Shown piece by piece: positions 9,964 through 45,494 of a stretch of 47,376 bases of DNA. Origin of the DNA: a virus. The notes beneath the pieces were generated by a model. That model worked only from the letters and a program-made list of their open reading frames with translations. It did not search any database and was not told the DNA's origin. The stretch lies in IMG/VR virus record IMGVR_UViG_3300032782_000015, positions 1-47,376 of that record. The stretch is one strand, 5' to 3'. The number at the start of each line of letters is the position of its first letter. The stretch's first letter is position 1. A program made the position numbers and the translations under genes.

Positions 9964-10314
9964 ATGACACTTTCCATTTCGGCATATTCAGGGTCGGGAA
10001 CGATCTCGACGACTGAAATTTCTATGACAACGGGATCGAGTGGCCCTGCCGTGAATACGACGGCGGGAATTTATCAGGCGTACATTGATTGCAACGCCAT
10101 GACGGCGGCTGATGAATTTCAGTTCGCTGTGTATGAGAAAGCAGTCTCTGGCGGCACACAGCGGCAGGTGCTGAACGTACATTTCCGGGGTGTACAGGCC
10201 ACGCCTATAGCCGTCTCTCCGTCGCTGATGCTCGGCATCGGCTGGGACATGACGCTGCTGAAAATTGCCGGAACGGATCGTTCATTGCCGTACCGCATCG
10301 CGCAGGTGGTGTGA
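9964..10314 (+). CDS. Conserved phage structural protein, 116 aa
   Basis: It reads as MTLSISAYSGSGTISTTEIS, then GIYQAYIDCNAMTAADEFQF, YEKAVSGGTQRQVL, and a C-terminal SPSLMLGIGWDMTLLKIAGTD. I recognise the arrangement from small all-beta phage proteins that accompany the preceding family. The stop overlaps the next start (TGATG). Exact function unknown; a surface or tail-fibre accessory role is likely. Confidence 0.6.
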   Translation: MTLSISAYSGSGTISTTEISMTTGSSGPAVNTTAGIYQAYIDCNAMTAADEFQFAVYEKAVSGGTQRQVLNVHFRGVQATPIAVSPSLMLGIGWDMTLLKIAGTDRSLPYRIAQVV

Positions 10315-11618
10315 TGGGATTGCTCTGGCCGCCTGCAACAAATCCGTCGAATGTATTCCTGCCTCAGCCATCCACGCGCCCTGCTGATTGGCCGTCTATG
10401 CCCGCACCGGCGGCAAATACTATCCGCATTTTGGCGGCGGTGTGGAATGCAACCGGCACGAATGGAAATTATTGCGCACTGAATGTTTCAGTGTCGTCCG
10501 GCACGTACACGGTGGACTGGGGCGATGGAACGGCGCCTCAGACATATACGAGTGGCTCAAAGGCGGATTATCAATATTCCTATGCATCATCCGGCCTCGC
10601 GCCGTTGACGGCTGAGGGGTACAAGACTGCGCTTGTCACGATCACGCCGACGACCGGCGGTCAGACGATCACCGCACTCAATCTAAATGTTCTGAATTCA
10701 TCGTCAAAAAACGGTGTGCCAAATCCGTGGCTTGATTTGCAGATCCATGCAACATCGCTAACATCTTTGGTTGTATCTGGGGGGAGTGGAAAATCTACAT
10801 TTTTAAATGCATGTAATATATATAGTCTTGGAAGCGTAACTAATCTATCCTATTGCTTCAGCTATTGCTATTCACTTCAGACGGTAACGTTCCCGAGCGG
10901 GTCTTTGGCGAGCGTAACTAATCTATCCTATTGCTTCAACTCTTGCTATTCACTTCAGACGGTAACGTTCCCGAGCGGGTCTTTGGCGAGCGTAACTAAT
11001 CTATCTAGTTGCTTCAGCTATTGCTATTCACTTCAGACGGTAACGTTCCCGAGCGGGTCTTTGGCGAGCGTAACTAATCTATATGGTTGCTTCATCTATT
11101 GCTATTCACTTCAGACGGTAACGTTCCCGAGCGGGTCTTTGGCGAGCGTAACTGACCTATCCTATTGCTTCAACTATTGCTATTCACTTCAGACGGTAAC
11201 GTTCCCGAGCGGGTCTTTGGCGAGCGTAACTAATCTATCTGGTTGCTTCAGCTATTGCACTTCACTTCAGACGGTAACGTTCCCGAGCGGGTCTTTGGCG
11301 AGCGTAACTAACCTATTCTATTGCTTCAACTCTTGCTATTCACTTCAGACGGTAACGTTCCCGAGCGGGTCTTTGGCGAGCGTAACTAATCTATCTGGTT
11401 GCTTCAACTCTTGCTATTCACTTTCATCAATAGTAAATGCAGCGTTCCCGATAACGTTTGATGTGTCTAATTGCGCGTTAACGAATACAGCAATAGATGC
11501 AATTTTCACAGCATTGCCAACGGTGTCCGGTCAGACGGCAACCGTCACTGGCAATCCAGGAGCCGCAACCTGTACACCATCTATTGCTACGGGTAAGGGC
11601 TGGACTGTCGTGCAGTGA
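10314..11618 (+). CDS. Repeat adhesin with 26-residue BspA/DUF285-type repeats
   Basis: The protein has 434 residues. An N-terminal PKD-like region (VSSGTYTVDWGDGTAPQTY) precedes seven full copies and one partial copy of a 26-residue unit, residues about 175-370: N-L-x-x-C-F-x-x-C-x-S-L followed by the constant QTVTFPSGSLASVT. The unit length and the NLxxCFxxCxSL pattern match the bacterial surface 26-residue repeat (DUF285, a leucine-rich-repeat relative). A short C-terminal cap ends with VSGQTATVTGNPG. Such solenoids bind ligands or cells. It is probably a virion-surface or receptor-binding protein. The ATG at 10314 overlaps the previous stop. Confidence 0.7.
   Translation: MGLLWPPATNPSNVFLPQPSTRPADWPSMPAPAANTIRILAAVWNATGTNGNYCALNVSVSSGTYTVDWGDGTAPQTYTSGSKADYQYSYASSGLAPLTAEGYKTALVTITPTTGGQTITALNLNVLNSSSKNGVPNPWLDLQIHATSLTSLVVSGGSGKSTFLNACNIYSLGSVTNLSYCFSYCYSLQTVTFPSGSLASVTNLSYCFNSCYSLQTVTFPSGSLASVTNLSSCFSYCYSLQTVTFPSGSLASVTNLYGCFIYCYSLQTVTFPSGSLASVTDLSYCFNYCYSLQTVTFPSGSLASVTNLSGCFSYCTSLQTVTFPSGSLASVTNLFYCFNSCYSLQTVTFPSGSLASVTNLSGCFNSCYSLSSIVNAAFPITFDVSNCALTNTAIDAIFTALPTVSGQTATVTGNPGAATCTPSIATGKGWTVVQ
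10838..11425 (+). repeat. 78-bp tandem repeats inside adhesin gene
   Basis: Units begin at 10838, 10916, 10994, 11072, 11150, 11228, 11306 and 11384, exactly 78 bp apart; the last is incomplete. About 48 bases per unit are identical in all full copies, while a short part encoding residues 3-10 of the unit changes, mostly in an amino-acid-altering way. Confidence 0.95.
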
Positions 11619-23122: not shown

Positions 23123-25012
23123 ATGACAGATACGGCAAGTGACGACGATTTCCAGGATGCGCTGACGCAGCTCAAATTCCATTTGCAGCAGAACGGCCCG
23201 CAGCGCTCCAATTACGCTGCCAAGGGGAACAATGCTTATTATGATGGCGCGGCTTCTCGCGTAACGAGTGTTGCCAAACAGAATTTTCCGGCGCTGACGG
23301 TGGGCAAAGACCAAAGACCGCCGGATTATGCCGGGGCGAGCGAGCTGGATTTTGGGCGCCCGGACGCAGCAGCAATGACAATGTCCGAAAACGCTGCGCG
23401 CAGTTATTTGTCGCCTCAGGTTTCGAATATCAGCGGCAAGGGGGACCGGGCGGATGTTTCCGGTCCCGGAGCGGGCGCCTACGCGGCCTACTATGGTTCA
23501 GTTCCCTTGCGGTACATGTTTCCGCATAAAATGGGTGATACTCCTCTCGGGATGATGGCGCCATCGGTATTCGGCAGTGAAAAAGACAGTCCGCAAGGTA
23601 AGCAGGGGATAGGATTGAGTGATATCCTGCCGGGCAGCCTGGGTACAGCAGCCGGAGCGGCCGAGGACCGCTTTCGTTTTGCCTACCCGGATACGGCAGC
23701 ACAGCAGGATGCGGAGAATTATGCGCGCGGTCAGCAGCCGCAGGATTTTACCGCGATTGGCGTAGGTAGCATCAAATCACCGGGAAAGGGTCTTGGCGGC
23801 CTTTTTGGCGGCCTGTTCGGCCGTAAAGTTCAACCGCCCGCCGGGCCGGATTTCAGGTATAATCGCGTCCTTGGCGATGCCGCCATAGCGTTGAAAAACG
23901 GCTCGACGATTGCAGACGCGGCAGAATATGCCGGGTTACCGGCTGCAGATTTGGCACGCGTGGTGACGGAAAACCGGGATGCTTTTCAGCAGGCGCATCC
24001 ATTATCCGATGCGGCCTGGACGCGGCTTGCGAAAGAGGCGCGCGCAATTAAAGCGCAATTGGCATCTAGCCCGGCACCGGCCGCTCCGGCCGCCCCCTTG
24101 ACGTCATCGGATTTGCCTCCGGCACCTCAAGGCGGCGGATTAACGGCGTCTATCCCCTGGGAGCAAACCGCCCTCGGTAAGCTGGAGGCGACGCGCCGCG
24201 CGGAGCAACTGGGCATCGCCGGCACATCCATTGGCGCGGCGCCTGCCGGGCTTCCCCCAGCCGGGCTTGGAGCTGCCGCCAATCCTTGGGGCGCCGAAAC
24301 CCTGCGCGCACTCGAAGCATATCACGGTAAACCGGAAGGATCGCTGACCTTGAACGATCTCATGAATGAAGACCCCGCCGCGGTGCGGCGCGAGATGGCC
24401 AGTTATGCGCCTCCTGCCCAGTCAATGGCGCTTGTACCATCCCCGGCGCCTGCCGGATTGTCCGCATCACTGCCGGTGGACGCCCCGGCGCAGCCGTCCG
24501 TAGCGGCACCGCGCACCATCGGCGAGCGCTGGGAGGCGTACTTCAATTCATTGCCCCCGGAGCTGGCCGCACGGGAACGCGCCATGCGCGGGCCAAATTT
24601 GGGATCGCAGACCGTACCGCCGCCAATGCCGCCGCTGGAGCGCGCGGCCTGGGAGCGCGTGAATTCGCCGGTCATGAATGAGAATTTGCAGAGCCTGTAT
24701 CGGCAGGCAGGTGTCACCGATCCGGCGGCATTGGCAGCCGGAGGCCGAGCATCTGTGCCTCCGGCTACTCCCGTGAATGTGTCGCCAAAGCCGGCACCGG
24801 CGGCCAAGGTCAGCCCGCCCCCTGGGGATGGCATCAAAACGCCTTCGGCTGGACAAATCAGCCAAGCGCAAACAATCGTGCAAAAACATGAGGAGGCAAA
24901 CGGCGTGCCAATGAAGCGGTTCACGCCTGCACAACGTCTGGCGGTCTACAATGATCTAAGGCCGGTCATGGGTTCCGTCCCGCCAACAAAGTGGCCGCCG
25001 TTTGTGAGGTAG
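23123..25012 (+). CDS. Ejection-type virion protein with shared cargo/packaging module
   Basis: The protein has 629 residues, with AAGGA 7-11 bases before the ATG. Residues about 117-223 form a module also found in the gene at 44436: YAAYYGSVPLRYMFPHK, TPLG, GKQGIGLSDILPGS, AEDRFRFAYPD and DFTAIGVGSIKSPGKG. A Gly/Phe-rich hinge follows, then a helical region (240-310) and a long Pro/Ala-rich disordered tail. It is the last gene of the ejection cluster, so it is probably packaged in the head and leaves with DNA. The module function is unknown. Confidence 0.6.
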   Translation: MTDTASDDDFQDALTQLKFHLQQNGPQRSNYAAKGNNAYYDGAASRVTSVAKQNFPALTVGKDQRPPDYAGASELDFGRPDAAAMTMSENAARSYLSPQVSNISGKGDRADVSGPGAGAYAAYYGSVPLRYMFPHKMGDTPLGMMAPSVFGSEKDSPQGKQGIGLSDILPGSLGTAAGAAEDRFRFAYPDTAAQQDAENYARGQQPQDFTAIGVGSIKSPGKGLGGLFGGLFGRKVQPPAGPDFRYNRVLGDAAIALKNGSTIADAAEYAGLPAADLARVVTENRDAFQQAHPLSDAAWTRLAKEARAIKAQLASSPAPAAPAAPLTSSDLPPAPQGGGLTASIPWEQTALGKLEATRRAEQLGIAGTSIGAAPAGLPPAGLGAAANPWGAETLRALEAYHGKPEGSLTLNDLMNEDPAAVRREMASYAPPAQSMALVPSPAPAGLSASLPVDAPAQPSVAAPRTIGERWEAYFNSLPPELAARERAMRGPNLGSQTVPPPMPPLERAAWERVNSPVMNENLQSLYRQAGVTDPAALAAGGRASVPPATPVNVSPKPAPAAKVSPPPGDGIKTPSAGQISQAQTIVQKHEEANGVPMKRFTPAQRLAVYNDLRPVMGSVPPTKWPPFVR

Positions 25013-27373: not shown

Positions 27374-28477
27374 ATGACGGCCTCGAATTTCGAACGTTCT
27401 CTGGCCGTCACTCTTCAGCAGGAGGGCGGCTTTTCCAACGACGCCGCCGACCACGGCGGCCGGACGATGCGCGGCATCACGCAGCGCGAATATAATGCCT
27501 GGCGGCGCCGCAAGGGCGAACCGGACGCCGATGTAAAAAGCATCAGCGAAAAGGAAATCCGCGACATCTACAAAAACAGCTACTGGCTCCCGTGCGGCTG
27601 TGACGCGCTGCCTCCCGGCCTTGACCTATGCGTTTTTGACTACGGCGTTAATTCCGGGCCATCACGCGCCATCCGGGAATTACAGACCGTCTTGGGTCTC
27701 CCGCAAACCGGCAAGCTGGCAGCAGCAGACGCCGCCGCGATCCTCGATCATCGCAACATCTCTGAGCTGGTAGACGCGTATTGCGATGCGCGCGCGGCCT
27801 TCCTGCGCCGCATCGGGCACGGCAGCCAGAGCGTATTCCTGCGCGGCTGGCTGTCACGCGTGAGTACGATCCGGCACGAGGCTCACGGCATCCAAGGGCT
27901 GCAGCTCGCTGGCGTTCCGGCCGCTCCGGCGCCGTCGTTGAGCATGGGCAGCACCGGCGAGGACGTGAAAACACTGCAAACCAAGCTGCGCGCCCTCGGC
28001 TATCCGGCCGGCTTGGTTGACGGCAATTACGGCCCGGCAACGCGCCGCGCCGTAATCCTGTTCCAGGAACAGGAAAAGCTCGACGGTACATCCGGCGAAT
28101 GGGCGCCGGAAGACTGGGCCGTTCTCGATGCGGCCAAGCCGATTCTCGAAGACCGCGCCGGCGCCACCGCTGCCGATCTCGACAAGGCGGGCGATACGCA
28201 AATCGCCCGGCTGCGCTGGATACGTCCCATTCTGACGTTTGCCGGTCTGGGCTGTCTGGCGGGCGGGAACGGGGATGAGCTGAAATCCTTCCCCGAGACC
28301 ATGAGTGCGGTGCAAGGTGCGATTCAGCCTATCGAGGATGTGCTGGCCTGGGCCGGTCATAATTGGTGGCTGCTCGGGCTGCTCGGCATTGCGGCTATTG
28401 CGGCCATTGTCGAACTCTGCATCCGCGAACATCTCGTTGCATTCCGGACAGGCGCTTATCAGGGACCGGCAAAATGA
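27374..28477 (+). CDS. Endolysin: GH108 muramidase with peptidoglycan-binding domain and membrane tail
   Basis: The protein has 367 residues, with AAGGAG upstream of the ATG. Residues 1-170 match glycoside hydrolase family 108: QQEGGFSNDAADHGGRTMRGIT (the Glu of EGG is the expected catalytic residue) and FDYGVNSGPSRAIRELQ. Residues about 190-255 form a PG_binding_1-like domain (STGEDVKTLQTKLRALGYP, DGNYGPATRRAVILFQ). A hydrophobic segment near 330-350 (WWLLGLLGIAAIAAIVEL) suggests membrane anchoring, as in TtsA/SAR-like lysins. It cuts glycan strands at lysis. The next gene overlaps by ATGA. Confidence 0.85.
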   Translation: MTASNFERSLAVTLQQEGGFSNDAADHGGRTMRGITQREYNAWRRRKGEPDADVKSISEKEIRDIYKNSYWLPCGCDALPPGLDLCVFDYGVNSGPSRAIRELQTVLGLPQTGKLAAADAAAILDHRNISELVDAYCDARAAFLRRIGHGSQSVFLRGWLSRVSTIRHEAHGIQGLQLAGVPAAPAPSLSMGSTGEDVKTLQTKLRALGYPAGLVDGNYGPATRRAVILFQEQEKLDGTSGEWAPEDWAVLDAAKPILEDRAGATAADLDKAGDTQIARLRWIRPILTFAGLGCLAGGNGDELKSFPETMSAVQGAIQPIEDVLAWAGHNWWLLGLLGIAAIAAIVELCIREHLVAFRTGAYQGPAK

Positions 28478-28882: not shown

Positions 28883-29148
28883 ATTCACGTAGAAAAACGG
28901 TGCCAGAAAACGGAAACGGCCGGGGTGCCTACTTCGATTTGACGAAAGGGACGCTGCCGATTATCACCGCCGTGACATTGATCGTCGGCGCCATAGCTCT
29001 CGCATATCAGGCGGGCGGCTTTACAGCGGCCTATACCGCATTTCAACATGAGACTGTTGCTAAGATCGCCGCGATGGAACAGCAGCTCATCAATATCTCA
29101 AATGCGATTGAGCAAATGCGCACTGAACAGCAGGGGCGCAAAAAATAA
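28855..29148 (+). CDS. Lysis-cassette protein with one membrane span and coiled coil, 97 aa
   Basis: It overlaps the preceding gene by 28 bases in another frame. A basic start is followed by one membrane span (LPIITAVTLIVGAIALAYQAG) and a C-terminal coiled-coil helix (ETVAKIAAMEQQLINISNAIEQMRTEQQ). An N-in membrane span with a periplasmic coiled coil is the layout of an inner-membrane spanin (Rz-like), though it could be a second holin. It ends at a strong terminator. Confidence 0.6.
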   Translation: MPSKCPQTVNSRRKTVPENGNGRGAYFDLTKGTLPIITAVTLIVGAIALAYQAGGFTAAYTAFQHETVAKIAAMEQQLINISNAIEQMRTEQQGRKK

Positions 29149-29170
29149 GGGCCGGAAATCCGGCCCTTAT
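29145..29170. terminator. Bidirectional terminator after lysis cassette
   Basis: A perfect 11-bp stem (ATAAGGGCCGG / CCGGCCCTTAT) with a 4-base loop AAAT lies at the end of the last lysis gene. A-rich sequence on the left gives a T-rich tail on the leftward strand. It therefore also terminates the convergent leftward gene pair ending at 29177. Confidence 0.8.
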
Positions 29171-29176
29171 CCGTTT

Positions 29177-29287
29177 CTAGATACCTCGCGGGCATCCGCA
29201 ATCGCTGCATGAGCTGCTGCTGGACGAATTCCATTTCGAGCAAAATGGACACCACCATCCGGTGGAGAAAAATATTCTCAGTCTCAT
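29177..29287 (-). CDS. 36-residue zinc-ribbon-like peptide
   Basis: The ATG overlaps the stop of the 62-aa gene (ATGA). The peptide has WWCPFCSKWNSSSSSCSDCG followed by a further Cys. Two CxxC pairs 10 residues apart make a compact zinc ribbon plausible. It is the last gene of a two-gene leftward unit that ends at the bidirectional terminator. No family is recognised. Confidence 0.5.
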   Translation of the reverse strand: MRLRIFFSTGWWCPFCSKWNSSSSSSCSDCGCPRGI

Positions 29288-29472
29288 TTTTCCTCCGGCG
29301 CCGGCGGTTCCTGAACGGGTTCCGGAGCGAGTTCCGGAGCTTGTTCATCCGGCGGCTGATGTTCGAAGGGCGGAACATTATGCCCATCGTCCGGTGTATA
29401 AAAAGGGTCTTGCTGTCCGTTTCCGTCCGGCTGGCCATTGCCGCCGCTGCAGATGAAATCATGAAATTGCAT
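29284..29472 (-). CDS. 62-residue Pro/Glu-rich acidic protein
   Basis: An AAAAGGAGAG ribosome binding sequence lies just before the ATG. The protein starts QFHDFICSGGNGQPDGNGQQ and continues as an acidic Pro-rich disordered tail (DEQAPELAPEPVQEPPAPEE). It is coupled to the zinc-ribbon-like peptide. Upstream on its strand lies the folded region 29497-29951, which would be its leader if transcribed leftward. A rightward 107-codon frame over the same DNA is judged a shadow. Confidence 0.55.
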   Translation of the reverse strand: MQFHDFICSGGNGQPDGNGQQDPFYTPDDGHNVPPFEHQPPDEQAPELAPEPVQEPPAPEEK

Positions 29473-29496
29473 GTTGCTCTCCTTTTCAATAAAGAT

Positions 29497-29951
29497 GCCC
29501 GGTCAAGCCTCGGGAGGGGACATTCAGCTTGACCGGGCCATTATCCAGTGTGGGCTTGGGGGCGATAACACTGGATATTCCCATGGGCAGAGGGAAAATT
29601 GCTGCCGGAAGGCGTCCCTCATGCGGAACCCGCCTGACCCGCACGATCTTCCGGCAGCTCCAACCCCGTTACGAGTTGGAATAGGACCTCACAGCGGCGA
29701 GCGACCGTTTGTACCGAACAAACAAACCCCCTGGGGTCCGCTGTGAGGGTTTTACGGTTCTGCAGAAAAAGCCCATCGGGGAAGGAGGCCCTGGCCTAGA
29801 GAATGTTAGACCACTTTTCCCGCAGTCCGTAAACTGCAAATTGACAAAAAGCTGCCGCTATCCACGGATTGGAGGCCTGCTACTGAAAGGCCAGCATAGA
29901 ATAGCGGCAGTTGAGTTTCTTACCTGGCACCACAAGAGCTTCCGTCTCTTG
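29497..29951. ncRNA. Large highly structured non-coding region (candidate ornate RNA)
   Basis: No supported gene lies here, but perfect long stems follow one another: 29497-29508/29527-29538 (12 bp), 29542-29551/29568-29577 (10 bp), 29601-29611/29648-29658 (11 bp, with an inner 5-bp stem), 29659-29664/29675-29680 (6 bp) and 29687-29697/29738-29748 (11 bp, enclosing a 6-bp hairpin 29707-29723). Then come 29751-29757 with 29827-29833 (7 bp, long range), 29852-29861/29901-29910 (10 bp, with an inner 5-bp stem) and 29933-29938/29946-29951 (6 bp). The density is far above chance and argues for a folded RNA. The strand is unresolved. Confidence 0.65.
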
Positions 29952-29975
29952 GGGTGACACTTTCTTAGCAGATAG

Positions 29976-30230
29976 TTAATCGCAAGGCAAGGGCAAAGTT
30001 TTGCAAATAAAGAACCCGATATCGCCGCATCCATAATCGCAATACCACATCTTGACTTTGTGTCCCGGCAATACCGCTTGTACGATATTGGATGCAGCCG
30101 CGTCGTTATCAACCCGGACAATGCCAATTGCCGTAGGCTTTACTTCCGCAGCGAGGTAATCTTCCAGCGTGCACGCAAAGACGGGGATGCGTTCCAGCAG
30201 GGCATACGGGCGTTTAGAGGAGTTCAGCAT
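29976..30230 (-). CDS. Hypothetical protein, 84 aa
   Basis: The ATG overlaps the stop of the upstream gene (TGATG), fixing the start although the frame is open further. The sequence has a beta/alpha look (PVFACTLEDYLAAEVKPTAIGIVRVD) and a Cys-containing C-terminal part (WYCDYGCGDIGFFICKTLPLPC). No family is recognised. It is the promoter-distal member of a two-gene leftward unit beside the attachment-site region. Confidence 0.55.
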   Translation of the reverse strand: MLNSSKRPYALLERIPVFACTLEDYLAAEVKPTAIGIVRVDNDAAASNIVQAVLPGHKVKMWYCDYGCGDIGFFICKTLPLPCD

Positions 30231-30511
30231 CAGGGTAGCCACCGTAACCAAAAGCCCAACGCCAGTGCTACCACTGCAAAGGTGGCCATAAATGCCCAGA
30301 CCATGGCCCAGCGGGCCGCCGAACGGGCACCGCGCCATGATTGCTCCGCCTCCGCTTCGAGTGCCTGAGCATTCTCCACATGCCTCATAAATTCAACCAT
30401 TCCCATGGCGAAATAATTCACGCGAAGCTGTTCAGCCGGCGTCAGCGAAGCGGGCGGTAATCCATCCTCCGCCAGGTCTGGTCCAGTGTCATTGACTGTA
30501 TGCATTGTCAT
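30230..30511 (-). CDS. C-terminally membrane-anchored protein, 93 aa
   Basis: CAGCAGGGAAT precedes the ATG. Residues 1-65 are acidic and helical (LTPAEQLRVNYFAMGMVEFM, then ENAQALEAEAEQSW). Residues 68-92 form a single membrane span (AMVWAFMATFAVVALALGFWLRW) at the C-terminus, a tail-anchor arrangement. Lysogeny-region proteins of this type sometimes act in superinfection exclusion, but that is only a guess from position. Confidence 0.55.
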   Translation of the reverse strand: MTMHTVNDTGPDLAEDGLPPASLTPAEQLRVNYFAMGMVEFMRHVENAQALEAEAEQSWRGARSAARWAMVWAFMATFAVVALALGFWLRWLP

Positions 30512-30572: not shown

Positions 30573-30734
30573 TGTGGCGATGATAAAATTCCGGTTTACT
30601 AGTGAGAGTTTTTTATGCTTTTGAGGCATTTTTAACGGGGAAAATTGGCGACGCTTAATTGTCCGGTAACTCTTCCTATTTCCTAAACTTAGGAAGAATG
30701 ATTTTGTTAACTAGTTGTTTTCCTTAATTATCAT

Positions 30735-30778
30735 ACAGATTTTGAGTCTGCCGCGTATACCAATTCCGCCACTGGGGC
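30735..30778 (-). other. 5' half of a tRNA-Leu(CAA) gene: probable attP core
   Basis: Read leftward, 44 bases align with a bacterial leucine tRNA: acceptor GCCCCAG, TG, D arm GCGG-AATTGGTATAC-GC, and anticodon arm GCAGA-CTCAAAA-TCTGT with anticodon CAA. Similarity stops at the end of the anticodon stem. A partial tRNA gene beside an integrase is the usual mark of a tRNA-integrating element. The anticodon loop is a known crossover location. Confidence 0.85.
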
Positions 30779-30830
30779 CTTATTTTTCAATGGGTTACAC
30801 CATCATATTTTTGCCGTTTTCCATCCAATC

Positions 30831-30905
30831 TTCCTAAATCTTCCTAAATCTTCCTAAAATCTTCCTAGGTTCTTCCTAAAAGTCTATTTAGGAAGCGCCT
30901 AGGAA
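30831..30905. repeat. Helically phased TTCCTAAA repeats (integrase arm sites)
   Basis: Five direct copies start at 30831, 30841, 30851, 30862 and 30873, spaced 10, 10, 11 and 11 bases. Two inverted copies follow (30887-30894 TTTAGGAA and 30900-30905 TAGGAA). Spacing of one helical turn places all copies on the same face of the DNA. Confidence 0.85.
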
Positions 30906-30910
30906 TTCTA

Positions 30911-32002
30911 TTATCGCCCATACCGGCGCGCGTCAATTGGTAATAGATCATTCATGATACTCGAACATTCGGCCATATGCGCCGGGGCGTATTTTGCATA
31001 CCGAAGCGTCTGATTGATGCATTTATGCCCCATCCAGATTTGCACGCGCGGGATTTCCACACCATTTTGCACCAGCCGCGTGGCGCAGGTATGCCGGAAT
31101 GTATAGACGACTGCATCATCTCCTAGCCAAGAAAGATGCTCCCGCAGCTTCCCCCAGAGATCGCGTGTTGCCGGCAATCCGGGATGCGCCCAAGTGAACG
31201 GCCCCTGGTTGCGCTCGGAAAGCTCGCCCATCGCCTCTACGGCGGCCGAGGCTGCCTCCGGCATACGCAGGCAGCGGGGCGTCGTGTTCTTGGTAATCGT
31301 GCCGTCCAGGTCGCACATCTGCCCTTTGAACGATGCCCATTTGAGCCGGTATGCCTCAATCGGCCGGCATCCCATGATGACCAAAAACGTAAACAGGGCG
31401 GCGTGACGGTCAAATTTCCATGCCTGGCATGTCTCAATGATGGCTCGTACTTCCTCGTCGGTAAACCACCGCATGCGGCCCGCGCCAACAGCACGTTTGT
31501 GCATCTCTGGCTTTCTCGCAATGATGCCCAGGTGCACAGCCTCTTTTGCCAGAGCGCTGATGGCGGCTGAGTAATGATTGACGGTGTTCCCCGATACCTT
31601 GGCATCGTATTCGCGCAGGAATCGCGTTACAGTCACGTCAGAGAGCGCCTCGGCGGCGGGCATCGTATCGCCGCACCATTCGACATATCGCAGAGCATTG
31701 CCCGTGGACGCCTTCCTGGCGGTCTTGCCATCGGCATATCGCGCCGATTTATGGGCAGGGTTGCCCGTCCAGCGTTTATCGTCCACGCGCCGGTAAAGCT
31801 GCCCGATGGTCAGCCCCGGAGCTTGGCGTAAAAAAGAAGCCGGCGCTATGGGGGGCACCGGCTCTGGATCGGGTTTCTTCTGACGGCATTCCGCCGCGTA
31901 TTTTTCAGCTTCGTCCCGCTGGCTGAAAGTCCGGTCGATTTTTTGACCGGCAACAGTCACTTTGACACGCCAGCCGCTACCGTTTGGATAAATCCCTTTC
32001 AT
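30911..32002 (-). CDS. int: Tyrosine-recombinase integrase
   Basis: The protein has 363 residues. The N-terminal part has an arm-binding-type segment (GSGWRVKVTVAGQKIDRTFS). A core-binding helical domain spans about residues 62-165. The catalytic domain has Arg213 (MGCRPIEAYRLKW), a basic residue near 238, Arg303 in YTFRHTCATRL (Tyr300 at the position often held by His), His326 in WMGH and Tyr334 in QTLRYAKY. It catalyses integration at the adjacent attP and, with an excisionase, excision. It is the distal gene of the leftward early operon, which suggests expression coupled to the recombination genes. The start overlaps the excisionase-like gene by 26 bases. Confidence 0.92.
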   Translation of the reverse strand: MKGIYPNGSGWRVKVTVAGQKIDRTFSQRDEAEKYAAECRQKKPDPEPVPPIAPASFLRQAPGLTIGQLYRRVDDKRWTGNPAHKSARYADGKTARKASTGNALRYVEWCGDTMPAAEALSDVTVTRFLREYDAKVSGNTVNHYSAAISALAKEAVHLGIIARKPEMHKRAVGAGRMRWFTDEEVRAIIETCQAWKFDRHAALFTFLVIMGCRPIEAYRLKWASFKGQMCDLDGTITKNTTPRCLRMPEAASAAVEAMGELSERNQGPFTWAHPGLPATRDLWGKLREHLSWLGDDAVVYTFRHTCATRLVQNGVEIPRVQIWMGHKCINQTLRYAKYAPAHMAECSSIMNDLLPIDARRYGR

Positions 32003-33766: not shown

Positions 33767-34192
33767 TTAATCCTCCCCTTGGTCTTCGGCGTAAACATCG
33801 CCATTTTCCAGCGTGCATTCACCGTTTTTTGTATTCCATGACCACGAAATGCAAATGTTGCCGTACATTTCGATGATTGCCTCGGCCCACAGCTTGGCGC
33901 CCTCGGCCCGCAGCTTGGCGCCCTCGGCCCGCAGCTTGGCGCCCTCGGCCCACAGCTTGTCGCCCTCGGCCCGCAGCTTGGCGCCCTCGGCCCGCAGCTT
34001 GGCGCCCTCGGCCCACAGCTTGGCGCCCTCGGCCCGCAGCTTGTCGCCCTCGGCCCACAGCTTGTCGCCCTCGGCCCACAGCTTGTCGCCCTCGGCCCAC
34101 AGCTTGGCGCCCTCGGCCCGCAGCTTGTCGCCCTCGGCCCACAGCTTGGCGCGATTCGACCACGCGGCGTGTAGTTGCAATTTGATTGTCAT
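33767..34192 (-). CDS. Heptad-repeat (KLWAEGD) coiled-coil protein
   Basis: The protein has 141 residues, started at MTIKLQLHAAWSN. Thirteen consecutive heptads of the form K-L-(W/R)-A-E-G-(D/A) fill residues about 14-104, then a compact C-terminal part with ICISWSWNTKNGECTLENGDVY. Leu at every seventh position and Lys/Glu at flanking positions suit a coiled coil or helical rod, though Gly in each heptad would kink it. Similar AEG-repeat proteins occur in phages without known function. It lies between the Nudix gene and the 104-aa gene. Confidence 0.65.
   Translation of the reverse strand: MTIKLQLHAAWSNRAKLWAEGDKLRAEGAKLWAEGDKLWAEGDKLWAEGDKLRAEGAKLWAEGAKLRAEGAKLRAEGDKLWAEGAKLRAEGAKLRAEGAKLWAEAIIEMYGNICISWSWNTKNGECTLENGDVYAEDQGED
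33881..34153. repeat. Thirteen 21-bp tandem repeats inside heptad-repeat gene
   Basis: Exactly 13 contiguous 21-bp units. All differences between units fall at two positions only: G/A in CCC(G/A)CAG, giving Arg or Trp, and G/T in TTG(G/T)CG, giving Ala or Asp. Apart from the very last base the remaining positions are constant. Confidence 0.95.
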
Positions 34193-34193
34193 G

Positions 34194-34784
34194 TCACCCT
34201 CCAATCTTGCCGTTAGCGATGGCCCAGTATCCAGCCAGCGCGGTCTTCTGATCGCGGATTTGCCCGTTGAGCAGCAAATCCATGAATTTGGCCGCGGGGA
34301 AGCGCAGCACCTGGATGTATTCGCCATTCAGGCCGCCGCGCGCCGGGGTTTCCTGCCCGGCAAACGGCGCGTAAAACACCGTGATGATTTCCGAACTGCC
34401 GCCCGGCGAGGAAAAGCATTCGCTGATCATCTCTAGGCCCGCAGGCTCAAGGATAATGCCAGTTTCCTCGCACACTTCGCGAACAATGGCCGTCACGGCG
34501 TCATCATCCTCCCTATCGATCCGCCCGGCGGCCAGTTCCAGCAGGGTGTCGCCAAGGCTGCGCCCGGTCACGGCCGGATACCGCCATTGCTTGGTGAGGA
34601 TGATTTCCCCCGTGACAACGTCATGCAGGAGCGCCGCCACGCTATCGCCGGGATCGAAGGAGATGCGCTTGACCTTCTCAACCAGCCGCCCGGCCTCGTC
34701 TTCGACGGTGATCAATCCTTCACGCAGTTGAAACGGACCGAATTTCTGGCAGATTTCGCTGCCGATTTTGTATTTGAATGTCAT
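34194..34784 (-). CDS. Nudix hydrolase (ADP-ribose/NDP-sugar pyrophosphatase-like)
   Basis: The protein has 196 residues, with AGAGGA 5 bases before the ATG at 34784. LLELAAGRIDRE precedes the Nudix box ending REVCEETGI; the spacing between the Gly and the REVCEE part is one residue longer than the standard box. FSSPGGSSEIITVFYA is typical of NudK/ADPRase-like enzymes, with the ITKQWRYP strand earlier. These cleave nucleoside diphosphates linked to another group. In a phage it may act on ADP-ribose or cleanse signalling nucleotides. It overlaps the upstream gene by ATGA. Confidence 0.85.
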   Translation of the reverse strand: MTFKYKIGSEICQKFGPFQLREGLITVEDEAGRLVEKVKRISFDPGDSVAALLHDVVTGEIILTKQWRYPAVTGRSLGDTLLELAAGRIDREDDDAVTAIVREVCEETGIILEPAGLEMISECFSSPGGSSEIITVFYAPFAGQETPARGGLNGEYIQVLRFPAAKFMDLLLNGQIRDQKTALAGYWAIANGKIGG

Positions 34785-43599: not shown

Positions 43600-44436
43600 A
43601 TGTTCTCTAGCCGCATCAAAGCCGCCCTGTGGGCCGTCAACCTCTCCACTCCGGTTGTGGACTTCGGCGGCTGGCTTTCTCTCATTCAGCATCAGCTCAG
43701 ACGCGCCACAGATTACGGCTGCGATCTGCTGGTAATGCCGGAGTACGCCTGCATGCAGCTACTGCATTACGCCCCAGCAGATTTAAGCAGCAAGGATCAG
43801 CCGCTCTGGCTGGGCAGGCAATTCATAGGCAATGCAGGAGACAGGCTGGCTTCGATTCCGCCTTATCATCAAGGTCAATCCAGTGCGGCACCTCTTGGCA
43901 TCCTGGCTGGAACGGCTCCCATTTTGCGCAGCCACGGCTTATGCACTAACACCGCTATCTGGCTCAGCAACGGCCACGCCAGCGCCATCCAGGATAAAAT
44001 TCACCTGACTCTCAGCGAGACCGATCCGCACGGCTGGCTCCTTTCCAGCGGCCGGGATATCATGCCATTCGAGTATCGCGGCCACATCATGGCTGTCTCG
44101 ATCTGCCACGACAACGATGTCGCGGCCACTGGCAGCAAGCTGAAATCGTTGGGCGTGGAGATTGTTCTGGCTCCCTCCATGTGCGACAGTAAATCCACCG
44201 GCGCCGACAGTCACGAACACATTTTCGCTGCCGCCAGACAGCGCGGCCTGGACGCAGGTGCCAAGGTTTACGCCGTAGGCGCCATCGGTATGGCAGGCGG
44301 GGAAACCTGCTGGGGCGGCGCAGCGATCTACGATGCCCAGGGCCACACCCTGGGCGAAATCCCGGCCATGAAGGAGACAGACAACATGTATGGACCGATG
44401 CTGGTTGAATTGGATGATGGAGTGAGGGTGATATAA
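43600..44436 (+). CDS. Carbon-nitrogen hydrolase (nitrilase superfamily)
   Basis: The protein has 278 residues from ATG 43600; the frame is open from 43471 but only the part from IKAALWAVNLS looks like the family. The catalytic triad is in place: Glu48 in LLVMPEYAC, Lys133 in QDKIHLTLS and Cys169 in MAVSICHDND. The family cleaves C-N bonds in nitriles, amides or carbamoyl compounds in the cytoplasm. It is unusual in a phage. The stop overlaps the next start (TAATG), so it is made together with the cargo-module protein. The substrate cannot be inferred. Confidence 0.8.
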   Translation: MFSSRIKAALWAVNLSTPVVDFGGWLSLIQHQLRRATDYGCDLLVMPEYACMQLLHYAPADLSSKDQPLWLGRQFIGNAGDRLASIPPYHQGQSSAAPLGILAGTAPILRSHGLCTNTAIWLSNGHASAIQDKIHLTLSETDPHGWLLSSGRDIMPFEYRGHIMAVSICHDNDVAATGSKLKSLGVEIVLAPSMCDSKSTGADSHEHIFAAARQRGLDAGAKVYAVGAIGMAGGETCWGGAAIYDAQGHTLGEIPAMKETDNMYGPMLVELDDGVRVI

Positions 44437-45494
44437 TGGGCTACACGGATGACAACGACGGTGATATAAATGATTTATTAGCATACATTAACACACAGCG
44501 TGTCAATACTTCTGATAAAGGAGGTCTCGCCTATGCGGCAAGCACTTCTTCCGATCCATCGTTGGGGGATTACGCGGCATATTATGCATCAGCGCCATTG
44601 CGTAGTTTTTTTCCGCATCGTATTGAAAATACCCCGCTTGGGGCTATTTCAGGGCTTTCGCAAACCTACGAAAGCCCTGTTGGCAAGCAGGGAGTTGGCT
44701 TAGGTGATTTTATTCCGGGATCTTGGGGAGATGCTATTAATTCCGCTGAAGATCGTTTTAGGGCGGCTTTTCCAGACTTGGCTAAGTCACAAGATTTATA
44801 TAATTATACGGCAGGACAAAAACCGCCAGATTTTTCAGGCATAGGCACTGGGACAATAAAAAGTATGGGCAAAGGGTTTTTATTGAAGGACGCAATGGGC
44901 GGCATTGCGCCGGATGTAACAATTAACGGCTCCCGTCCGTTGACCGTGACAGTTAATGGTATCCGTCAGACCACGCCACAGCACTTTACGATCAACAGTA
45001 CTGCGGAAAATTTGCCACTATCGCTTGATAGGAAGTTTTCTTCTTTTGAAGAGGCACAACAAGCTTTAGAAAAAATGGATTTTAATCTTACGGAAATTAA
45101 AAAAGATGGCTACGGTCAACCAGCAGCGACCATGACACATGGTCCCTCAAGGACCGTTTTGGAACGATTACAAGCAGCACACGACAAACGATGGGCAGAC
45201 TCGCAAGATGTATATCTTAGATACGGAGAGATACCTGCGAATGAGCGGTCTTTAAATCACGCGAGCAGAGAATACGAAGATGGAGTGTCTGTTTACAATG
45301 GAAAGTTAAACAAACAAGGAGAAGTGATGGTCACACCCAATACGCCAGCTCAGATTTGGGGAGAAAAGGCGTACTCGAATCTTACAGACAAGCCGCTATA
45401 TATCGTACGTGGCGACCATGTAGGATTTGGTTCAGATGGCGAACCCGTTTTGAGAAATGTAACAATTGTACGCAAGATTAATAAAGCAAAATGA
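44436..45494 (+). CDS. Putative virion-cargo effector with ejection-protein module
   Basis: The protein has 352 residues and is strongly AT-rich compared with its neighbours. Residues about 46-147 match the module of the ejection-type protein at 23123: DYAAYYASAPLRSFFPH, TPLG, GKQGVGLGDFIPGS, AEDRFRAAFPD and GIGTGTIKSMGKG. After a linker comes a different C-terminal domain (about 200-352) with VYLRYGEIPANERSLNH, YEDGVSVYNG and PLYIVRGDHVGFGSDGEP. This vaguely recalls ADP-ribosyltransferase or toxin domains, but no firm motif is present. A protein of this plan could be packaged and delivered with the DNA. Confidence 0.6.
   Translation: MGYTDDNDGDINDLLAYINTQRVNTSDKGGLAYAASTSSDPSLGDYAAYYASAPLRSFFPHRIENTPLGAISGLSQTYESPVGKQGVGLGDFIPGSWGDAINSAEDRFRAAFPDLAKSQDLYNYTAGQKPPDFSGIGTGTIKSMGKGFLLKDAMGGIAPDVTINGSRPLTVTVNGIRQTTPQHFTINSTAENLPLSLDRKFSSFEEAQQALEKMDFNLTEIKKDGYGQPAATMTHGPSRTVLERLQAAHDKRWADSQDVYLRYGEIPANERSLNHASREYEDGVSVYNGKLNKQGEVMVTPNTPAQIWGEKAYSNLTDKPLYIVRGDHVGFGSDGEPVLRNVTIVRKINKAK

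What the first reader, a model, noticed from the sequence alone, without database searches (positions are those of the whole stretch)
29497..29951. Large, densely folded non-coding region, possibly a new ornate phage RNA
About 450 bases without a credible gene contain at least eight helices of 6-12 perfect pairs, including a 7-bp long-range helix (29751-29757 with 29827-29833) and two hairpins with inner stems. The region sits between the lysis/zinc-ribbon cassette and the integration region, where phages often carry large RNAs (GOLLD- and ROOL-type RNAs are known from phages). I do not recognise the consensus of either. Alternatives are a long structured leader for the leftward 62-aa gene or a cluster of protein-binding inverted repeats.
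Basis: partly seen in the sequence, partly recalled or inferred. Interest (0 to 1): 0.88.

Follow-up and report, generated by a model that had tools for sequence, protein, structure and literature searches.

The report
Orphan folded RNA region in phage
A roughly 460-base stretch of a temperate phage genome, with no protein-coding signal found, is folded into nine closely packed hairpins far beyond chance and matches no known RNA family, so it is probably a functional phage RNA, but no relative was found with which to prove that evolution preserves its structure.

Summary
Window 29497-29956 holds nine nearly contiguous hairpins: five perfect stems of 10 bp or more against 0.03 expected in shuffles; fold z -6.7 on the minus strand, -3.9 on the plus strand. 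No ORF in it resembles a known protein and no Rfam family matches, GOLLD and ROOL included. It fills a 503-nt gap in a leftward gene cluster (p93-p84, structured region, p62-zr36, intrinsic terminator at about 29170-29139) between attP, which is the 5' half of a tRNA-Leu(CAA), and the lysis genes, where prophages often carry accessory genes. One long composite helix forms well only on the minus strand, favouring a leftward transcript. The nearest relative read in full (G002) has a similarly hairpin-dense gap without sequence similarity. Best reading: an orphan structured phage RNA, acting in trans or as a leader of p62-zr36; not a GOLLD or ROOL.

The parts
29497..29956 (-). Structured region: nine hairpins (H1 at the 5' end to H9 at the 3' end when read on the minus strand)
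   Evidence: fold z -6.65 on -, -3.86 on +; stem count against shuffles
29928..29956 (-). H1 hairpin, 4+6 bp
   Evidence: z -2.3
29852..29910 (-). H2 hairpin, 10 perfect bp plus inner stem, followed on the minus strand by a T5 run (29850-29846): terminator-like
   Evidence: z -4.0; sequence
29751..29833 (-). H3 composite long-range helix: 7 bp + 12 bp (two G-U) + inner 6-bp stem; forms well only on the minus strand
   Evidence: - strand -34.3 kcal/mol, z -3.0; + strand -25.6, z -0.7
29687..29748 (-). H4 hairpin, 11 perfect bp with an inner hairpin
   Evidence: z -3.3
29659..29680 (-). H5 hairpin, 8 bp (one G-U on the minus strand)
   Evidence: z -4.1
29601..29658 (-). H6 hairpin, 11 perfect bp with an inner stem, directly abutting H5
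   Evidence: z -4.2 on -, -6.4 on +
29578..29596 (-). H7 weak hairpin, 5 bp, abutting H8
   Evidence: z -1.5
29542..29577 (-). H8 hairpin, 10 perfect bp
   Evidence: z -6.6
29497..29538 (-). H9 hairpin, 12 perfect bp (13 with a U-G on -), 24 nt before the p62 start codon
   Evidence: z -4.2
29284..29472 (-). p62: small Pro/Glu-rich ORF with a strong Shine-Dalgarno (AAAGGAGAG), directly downstream of H9
   Evidence: no family match
29177..29287 (-). zr36: 36-aa CxxC...CxxC ORF overlapping the p62 stop (ATGA), with its own GGAGG
29139..29170 (-). Intrinsic terminator of the leftward unit: 12-bp G+C-rich stem followed by T6
   Evidence: (I4); sequence
29976..30227 (-). p84: ORF upstream of the structured region, start codon overlapping the p93 stop (TGATG)
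   Evidence: no homolog
30230..30511 (-). p93: ORF with one hydrophobic C-terminal stretch, a likely membrane helix (by eye)
30735..30778 (-). attP core: 5' half of tRNA-Leu(CAA)
30911..32002 (-). Tyrosine integrase
   Evidence: Pfam PF00589, E 2e-13

Best explanation
A leftward-transcribed, orphan structured RNA of about 460 nt carried by a temperate phage at the attachment-site end of its genome. It is a non-coding segment between p93-p84 and p62-zr36 and works as a folded RNA; the trans-acting form (a separate or processed ncRNA) is slightly favoured over a purely cis-acting leader. Shown: the dense, compact hairpins, the lack of a detectable protein, the gene order, the downstream terminator, the attP identity, and the minus-strand bias of one long helix. 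Inferred: that it is transcribed and functional. Further inferred: because attP carries the 5' half of tRNA-Leu, integration would leave the host tRNA promoter upstream of p93-p84-RNA-p62, so the RNA could be made in lysogens.
For: Fold z -6.65 on the minus strand. Five perfect stems of 10 bp or more against 0.03 expected. Nine hairpins fill the 503-nt gap, with linkers of 0-6 nt from H3 to H9 and two pairs abutting directly. H3 is stable only on the minus strand (z -3.0 against -0.7). No protein homology for the ORFs in the region. Genes on both sides are on the minus strand, with overlapping stop/start codons and Shine-Dalgarno sites and a terminator at the end. attP in tRNA-Leu. The nearest relative read in full, G002, also has a hairpin-dense gap between integrase and lysis genes (z -7.3).
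Against: No homolog, so no covariation and no evidence of conservation. No consensus promoter near the 5' end. G-U pairs are not enriched and are about equally frequent in the folds of both strands; several single hairpins fold as well or better on the plus strand. G002's gap shares no sequence with this one. A more distant phage (G038) also has a hairpin-rich gap, so dense hairpins may be a looser feature of such gaps.
Confidence: 0.4

Rival explanations
1. Long structured 5' leader (cis-regulatory) of the p62-zr36 mRNA: the hairpins control stability, termination or translation of the two small genes, with H9 next to the p62 ribosome-binding site.
For: p62 starts 24 nt after H9 with a strong Shine-Dalgarno; p62 and zr36 overlap (ATGA) and end in an intrinsic terminator.
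Against: At about 460 nt with nine hairpins it is longer than usual leaders; no Rfam cis-regulatory match. Whether the Shine-Dalgarno can be sequestered was not tested (the fold stops just before it).
Confidence: 0.3
2. Intercistronic transcription-control segment: terminator-like and stabilising hairpins (H2 with T5, H9) that end p93-p84 transcription and protect mRNA ends, without a specific higher-order fold.
For: H2 is a G+C-rich stem followed by TTTTT on the minus strand; G002's hairpin-dense gap contains two terminator-like hairpins with U-runs; G038's gap has two similar hairpins.
Against: Only H2 has a U-run, and its 39-nt loop makes a poor terminator; nine hairpins are far more than termination needs; H3 is a composite long-range helix.
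Confidence: 0.15
3. DNA-level cluster of inverted repeats (protein-binding sites, or an origin-like or recombination element), not an RNA.
For: Stems are perfect Watson-Crick, the G-U fraction (7.5%) is below that of shuffles (13%), and most hairpins fold about equally on both strands.
Against: Arms differ in sequence between hairpins and loops are 16-40 nt with inner stems, unlike repeated operator sites; no shared repeat unit in the region; H3 is minus-strand specific; the integrase arm-type repeats lie elsewhere (30667-30880).
Confidence: 0.12
4. Chance or decayed sequence without function.
For: No conservation could be shown.
Against: 0 of 2000 shuffles reach the stem count; top of 22,625 windows.
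Confidence: 0.03

Closest known systems
GOLLD RNA (Rfam)
   Same: Large folded RNA of phages and prophages
   Different: No covariance match even at E 10; about 460 nt where many GOLLD exceed 800 nt (PMC12286853); no tRNA island
ROOL RNA (Rfam)
   Same: Large multi-helix RNA of phages and prophages
   Different: No covariance match; shorter than the 659-nt ROOL example of PMC12286853; a chain of hairpins with one composite helix and no pseudoknot identified here; no phage tRNA genes nearby
Hairpin-dense gap of the nearest relative read in full, IMG/VR 3300012943_000011 (G002, L095:16344-16835)
   Same: Similar size (about 490 nt), non-coding, between integrase and lysis genes, z -7.3
   Different: No sequence similarity in either orientation; flanked by convergent genes; contains two terminator-like hairpins with U-runs

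Membership tests
GOLLD RNA | Matches the Rfam covariance model | tested here: not met
   No match at the gathering threshold, nor at E up to 10
GOLLD RNA | Often encoded near phage tRNA islands | tested here: not met
   ARAGORN finds no tRNA gene in the window; only a tRNA half at attP
ROOL RNA | Matches the Rfam covariance model | tested here: not met
ROOL RNA | Assembles into a homo-oligomeric nanocage | not testable with these tools
   Needs cryo-EM or native gels
Any family of structured RNA | Covariation of stems among relatives | tested here: inconclusive
   No homolog found in any collection searched, so the test could not be run
Structured mRNA leader of p62 | Transcribed together with p62 | not testable with these tools
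   Position, strand and downstream terminator fit; needs RNA-seq
Intrinsic terminator array | Each hairpin followed by a U-run | tested here: not met
   By reading the sequence only H2 has a T5 run; the pattern scan, limited to loops of 3-8, finds no terminator-like site within 29497-29956

The most novel reading that the evidence does not exclude
A new class of ornate phage RNA, unrelated to GOLLD and ROOL, placed at the prophage end so that integration into tRNA-Leu puts it under the host tRNA promoter, making it a lysogen-expressed RNA.
Probability: 0.2. Interest if true: 0.75.

Novelty: new variant of a known kind. Interest (0 to 1): 0.42.

Why it matters
Large structured phage RNAs are few and their functions are poorly understood. 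A compact orphan in the accessory zone of a temperate phage, with a plausible route to expression in the lysogen, would add an independent case. It would also show that such RNAs can lack any detectable relative in large public collections, so homology-based RNA surveys may miss them.

Tried and rejected
(1) Rfam on the whole window, and with a permissive threshold on the region: only weak chance matches. (2) DNA similarity in INPHARED and PLSDB: nothing beyond 25-31-base chance matches. (3) Relatives through the terminase (80 loci) and the integrase (80 loci) in IMG/VR: no homolog of the region by BLAST, and none with a single-sequence covariance model of H6-H9 in the sequence searched; a single-sequence model is insensitive, so this is weak evidence of absence. 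(4) p120/p84, p93 and p62+zr36 as queries: no relative. (5) Exact two-arm stem patterns: H6 gave none in IMG/VR; H9 gave one hit, which lies in what looks like a coding frame; H4 gave two hits among 84,980 genomes, a Sphingomonas and an Anaeromyxobacter MAG, about what my hand estimate gives for a 22-base pattern with 26 allowed gap lengths (roughly 0.4-2), so treated as chance. (6) Other stem-dense places in relatives (L112, L116, L119, L070, L081) were mostly coding or simple repeats. (8) Complementarity of 6 nt or more between unpaired stretches of the minus-strand fold: none. (9) Terminase relatives in 385 alphaproteobacterial genomes reach only about 60% identity, so no close prophage was found.

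Full report
What is there. The window is an IMG/VR virus record of 47,376 bases. Between a rightward lysis module (endolysin 27374-28477) and a leftward tyrosine integrase (30911-32002, PF00589) lies a leftward gene cluster: p93 (30511-30230), p84 (30227-29976, start overlapping the p93 stop), a 503-nt gap, p62 (29472-29284) and a 36-aa CxxC...CxxC ORF (29287-29177, overlapping the p62 stop), then a 12-bp G+C-rich stem followed by T6, an intrinsic terminator, at about 29170-29139. The finding is the gap.

Is it more than chance. The region 29490-29980 folds to -210 kcal/mol on the minus strand (z -6.65) and -194 on the plus strand (z -3.86), with no shuffle as stable. It has five perfect stems of 10 bp or more with loops of at most 60; 2000 dinucleotide shuffles gave a mean of 0.03 and a maximum of 1. 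Scored by chained perfect stems it is the best of 22,625 windows over the window and about 1.1 Mb of related phages, and a further 1.65 Mb scan (partly the same phages) gave nothing higher among windows whose longest open frame was under 110 codons. The region's ORFs match no PHROGs family, and the two longest plus-strand ones match no phage by tblastn. Chance and coding are both poor explanations.

Anatomy. On the minus strand nine hairpins follow each other: H1 29956-29928, H2 29910-29852, H3 29833-29751, H4 29748-29687, H5 29680-29659, H6 29658-29601, H7 29596-29578, H8 29577-29542, H9 29538-29497. From H3 to H9 the linkers are 0-6 nt, and H5/H6 and H7/H8 abut. H3 is stable on the minus strand (z -3.0) and not on the plus strand (z -0.7). 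This, with the minus-strand genes on both sides, favours a leftward RNA. It is not decisive: other hairpins are about as good on the plus strand, and overall G-U use is low and alike on both strands.

Place. The sequence 30778-30735 on the minus strand is the 5' half of tRNA-Leu(CAA): it matches that gene in alphaproteobacterial genomes (217 of 385 genomes have a match at E 1e-6, and all listed matches fall there). Direct repeats CTTCCTAAA around it look like integrase arm sites. So in a prophage the cluster p93-p84-RNA-p62-zr36 would sit at the end away from the integrase, where accessory genes are often found (general knowledge of prophages). By inference, since the phage supplies the tRNA 5' half for the restored gene, the host tRNA promoter and 5' half would be left upstream of p93, giving a route to expression in the lysogen. 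This was not tested.

Relatives. The terminase has relatives up to 67% identical in IMG/VR and 52-53% to Brevundimonas phages. None of 50 searched records has a DNA relative of the region. INPHARED, PLSDB, 385 alphaproteobacterial genomes, 80 integrase loci, and a single-sequence covariance model of H6-H9 give none either. p93, p84 and p62+zr36 also have none. Hence no covariation test was possible. The nearest relative read in full, G002, has a 490-nt hairpin-dense gap between its integrase and lysis genes (z -7.3 on the plus strand, -6.5 on the minus strand) but no sequence similarity. A more distant phage, G038, has a 450-nt gap next to its lysis genes (z -5.9) with two similar hairpins. 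Whether these are analogous is unknown.

Known families. Rfam gives no match at gathering thresholds for the window and only weak matches to unrelated families at E up to 10 for the region. GOLLD and ROOL are described as phage and prophage RNAs often near tRNA islands, with many GOLLD over 800 nt and a 659-nt ROOL example (PMC12286853). Here there is no tRNA gene and no model match. It is not a member of either on the features tested.

Judgement. A real, dense, probably leftward-transcribed RNA structure: about 0.7 that it acts as an RNA, split between a separate or processed ncRNA (about 0.4) and a leader of p62-zr36 (about 0.3). The rest is a termination or stabilising array, a DNA-level element, or, least likely, chance. 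The missing homologs keep the interest moderate.

Noticed in passing
30735-30778 (-): attP core is the 5' half of tRNA-Leu(CAA), flanked by direct repeats CTTCCTAAA (30667-30880) that look like integrase arm sites.
   Followed up: yes
29139-29170 (-): Strong intrinsic terminator of the leftward unit, overlapping the 3' end of the rightward lysis genes; not listed by the pattern scan.
   Followed up: yes
L095:16344-16835: Hairpin-dense non-coding gap (z -7.3 / -6.5) in the nearest relative read in full, with two terminator-like hairpins and no similarity to the window region.
   Followed up: partly
L150:3955-4411: Hairpin-dense gap before the lysis genes of another related phage; two of its hairpins (AGCCCGATCTRCCG...) are near copies of each other.
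   Followed up: partly
33767-34327 (-): ORF with about thirteen tandem seven-residue repeats of the KLWAEGD / KLRAEGA type.
   Followed up: no
10311-11618 (+): ORF with tandem 'LASVTNLSYCFNSCYSLQTVTFPSGS' repeats, resembling BspA-type leucine-rich repeats by eye.
   Followed up: no
23123-25012 and 44436-45494: Two ORFs that look related to each other by eye (AAYY.S.PLR..FPH....TPLG) in different parts of the genome.
   Followed up: no
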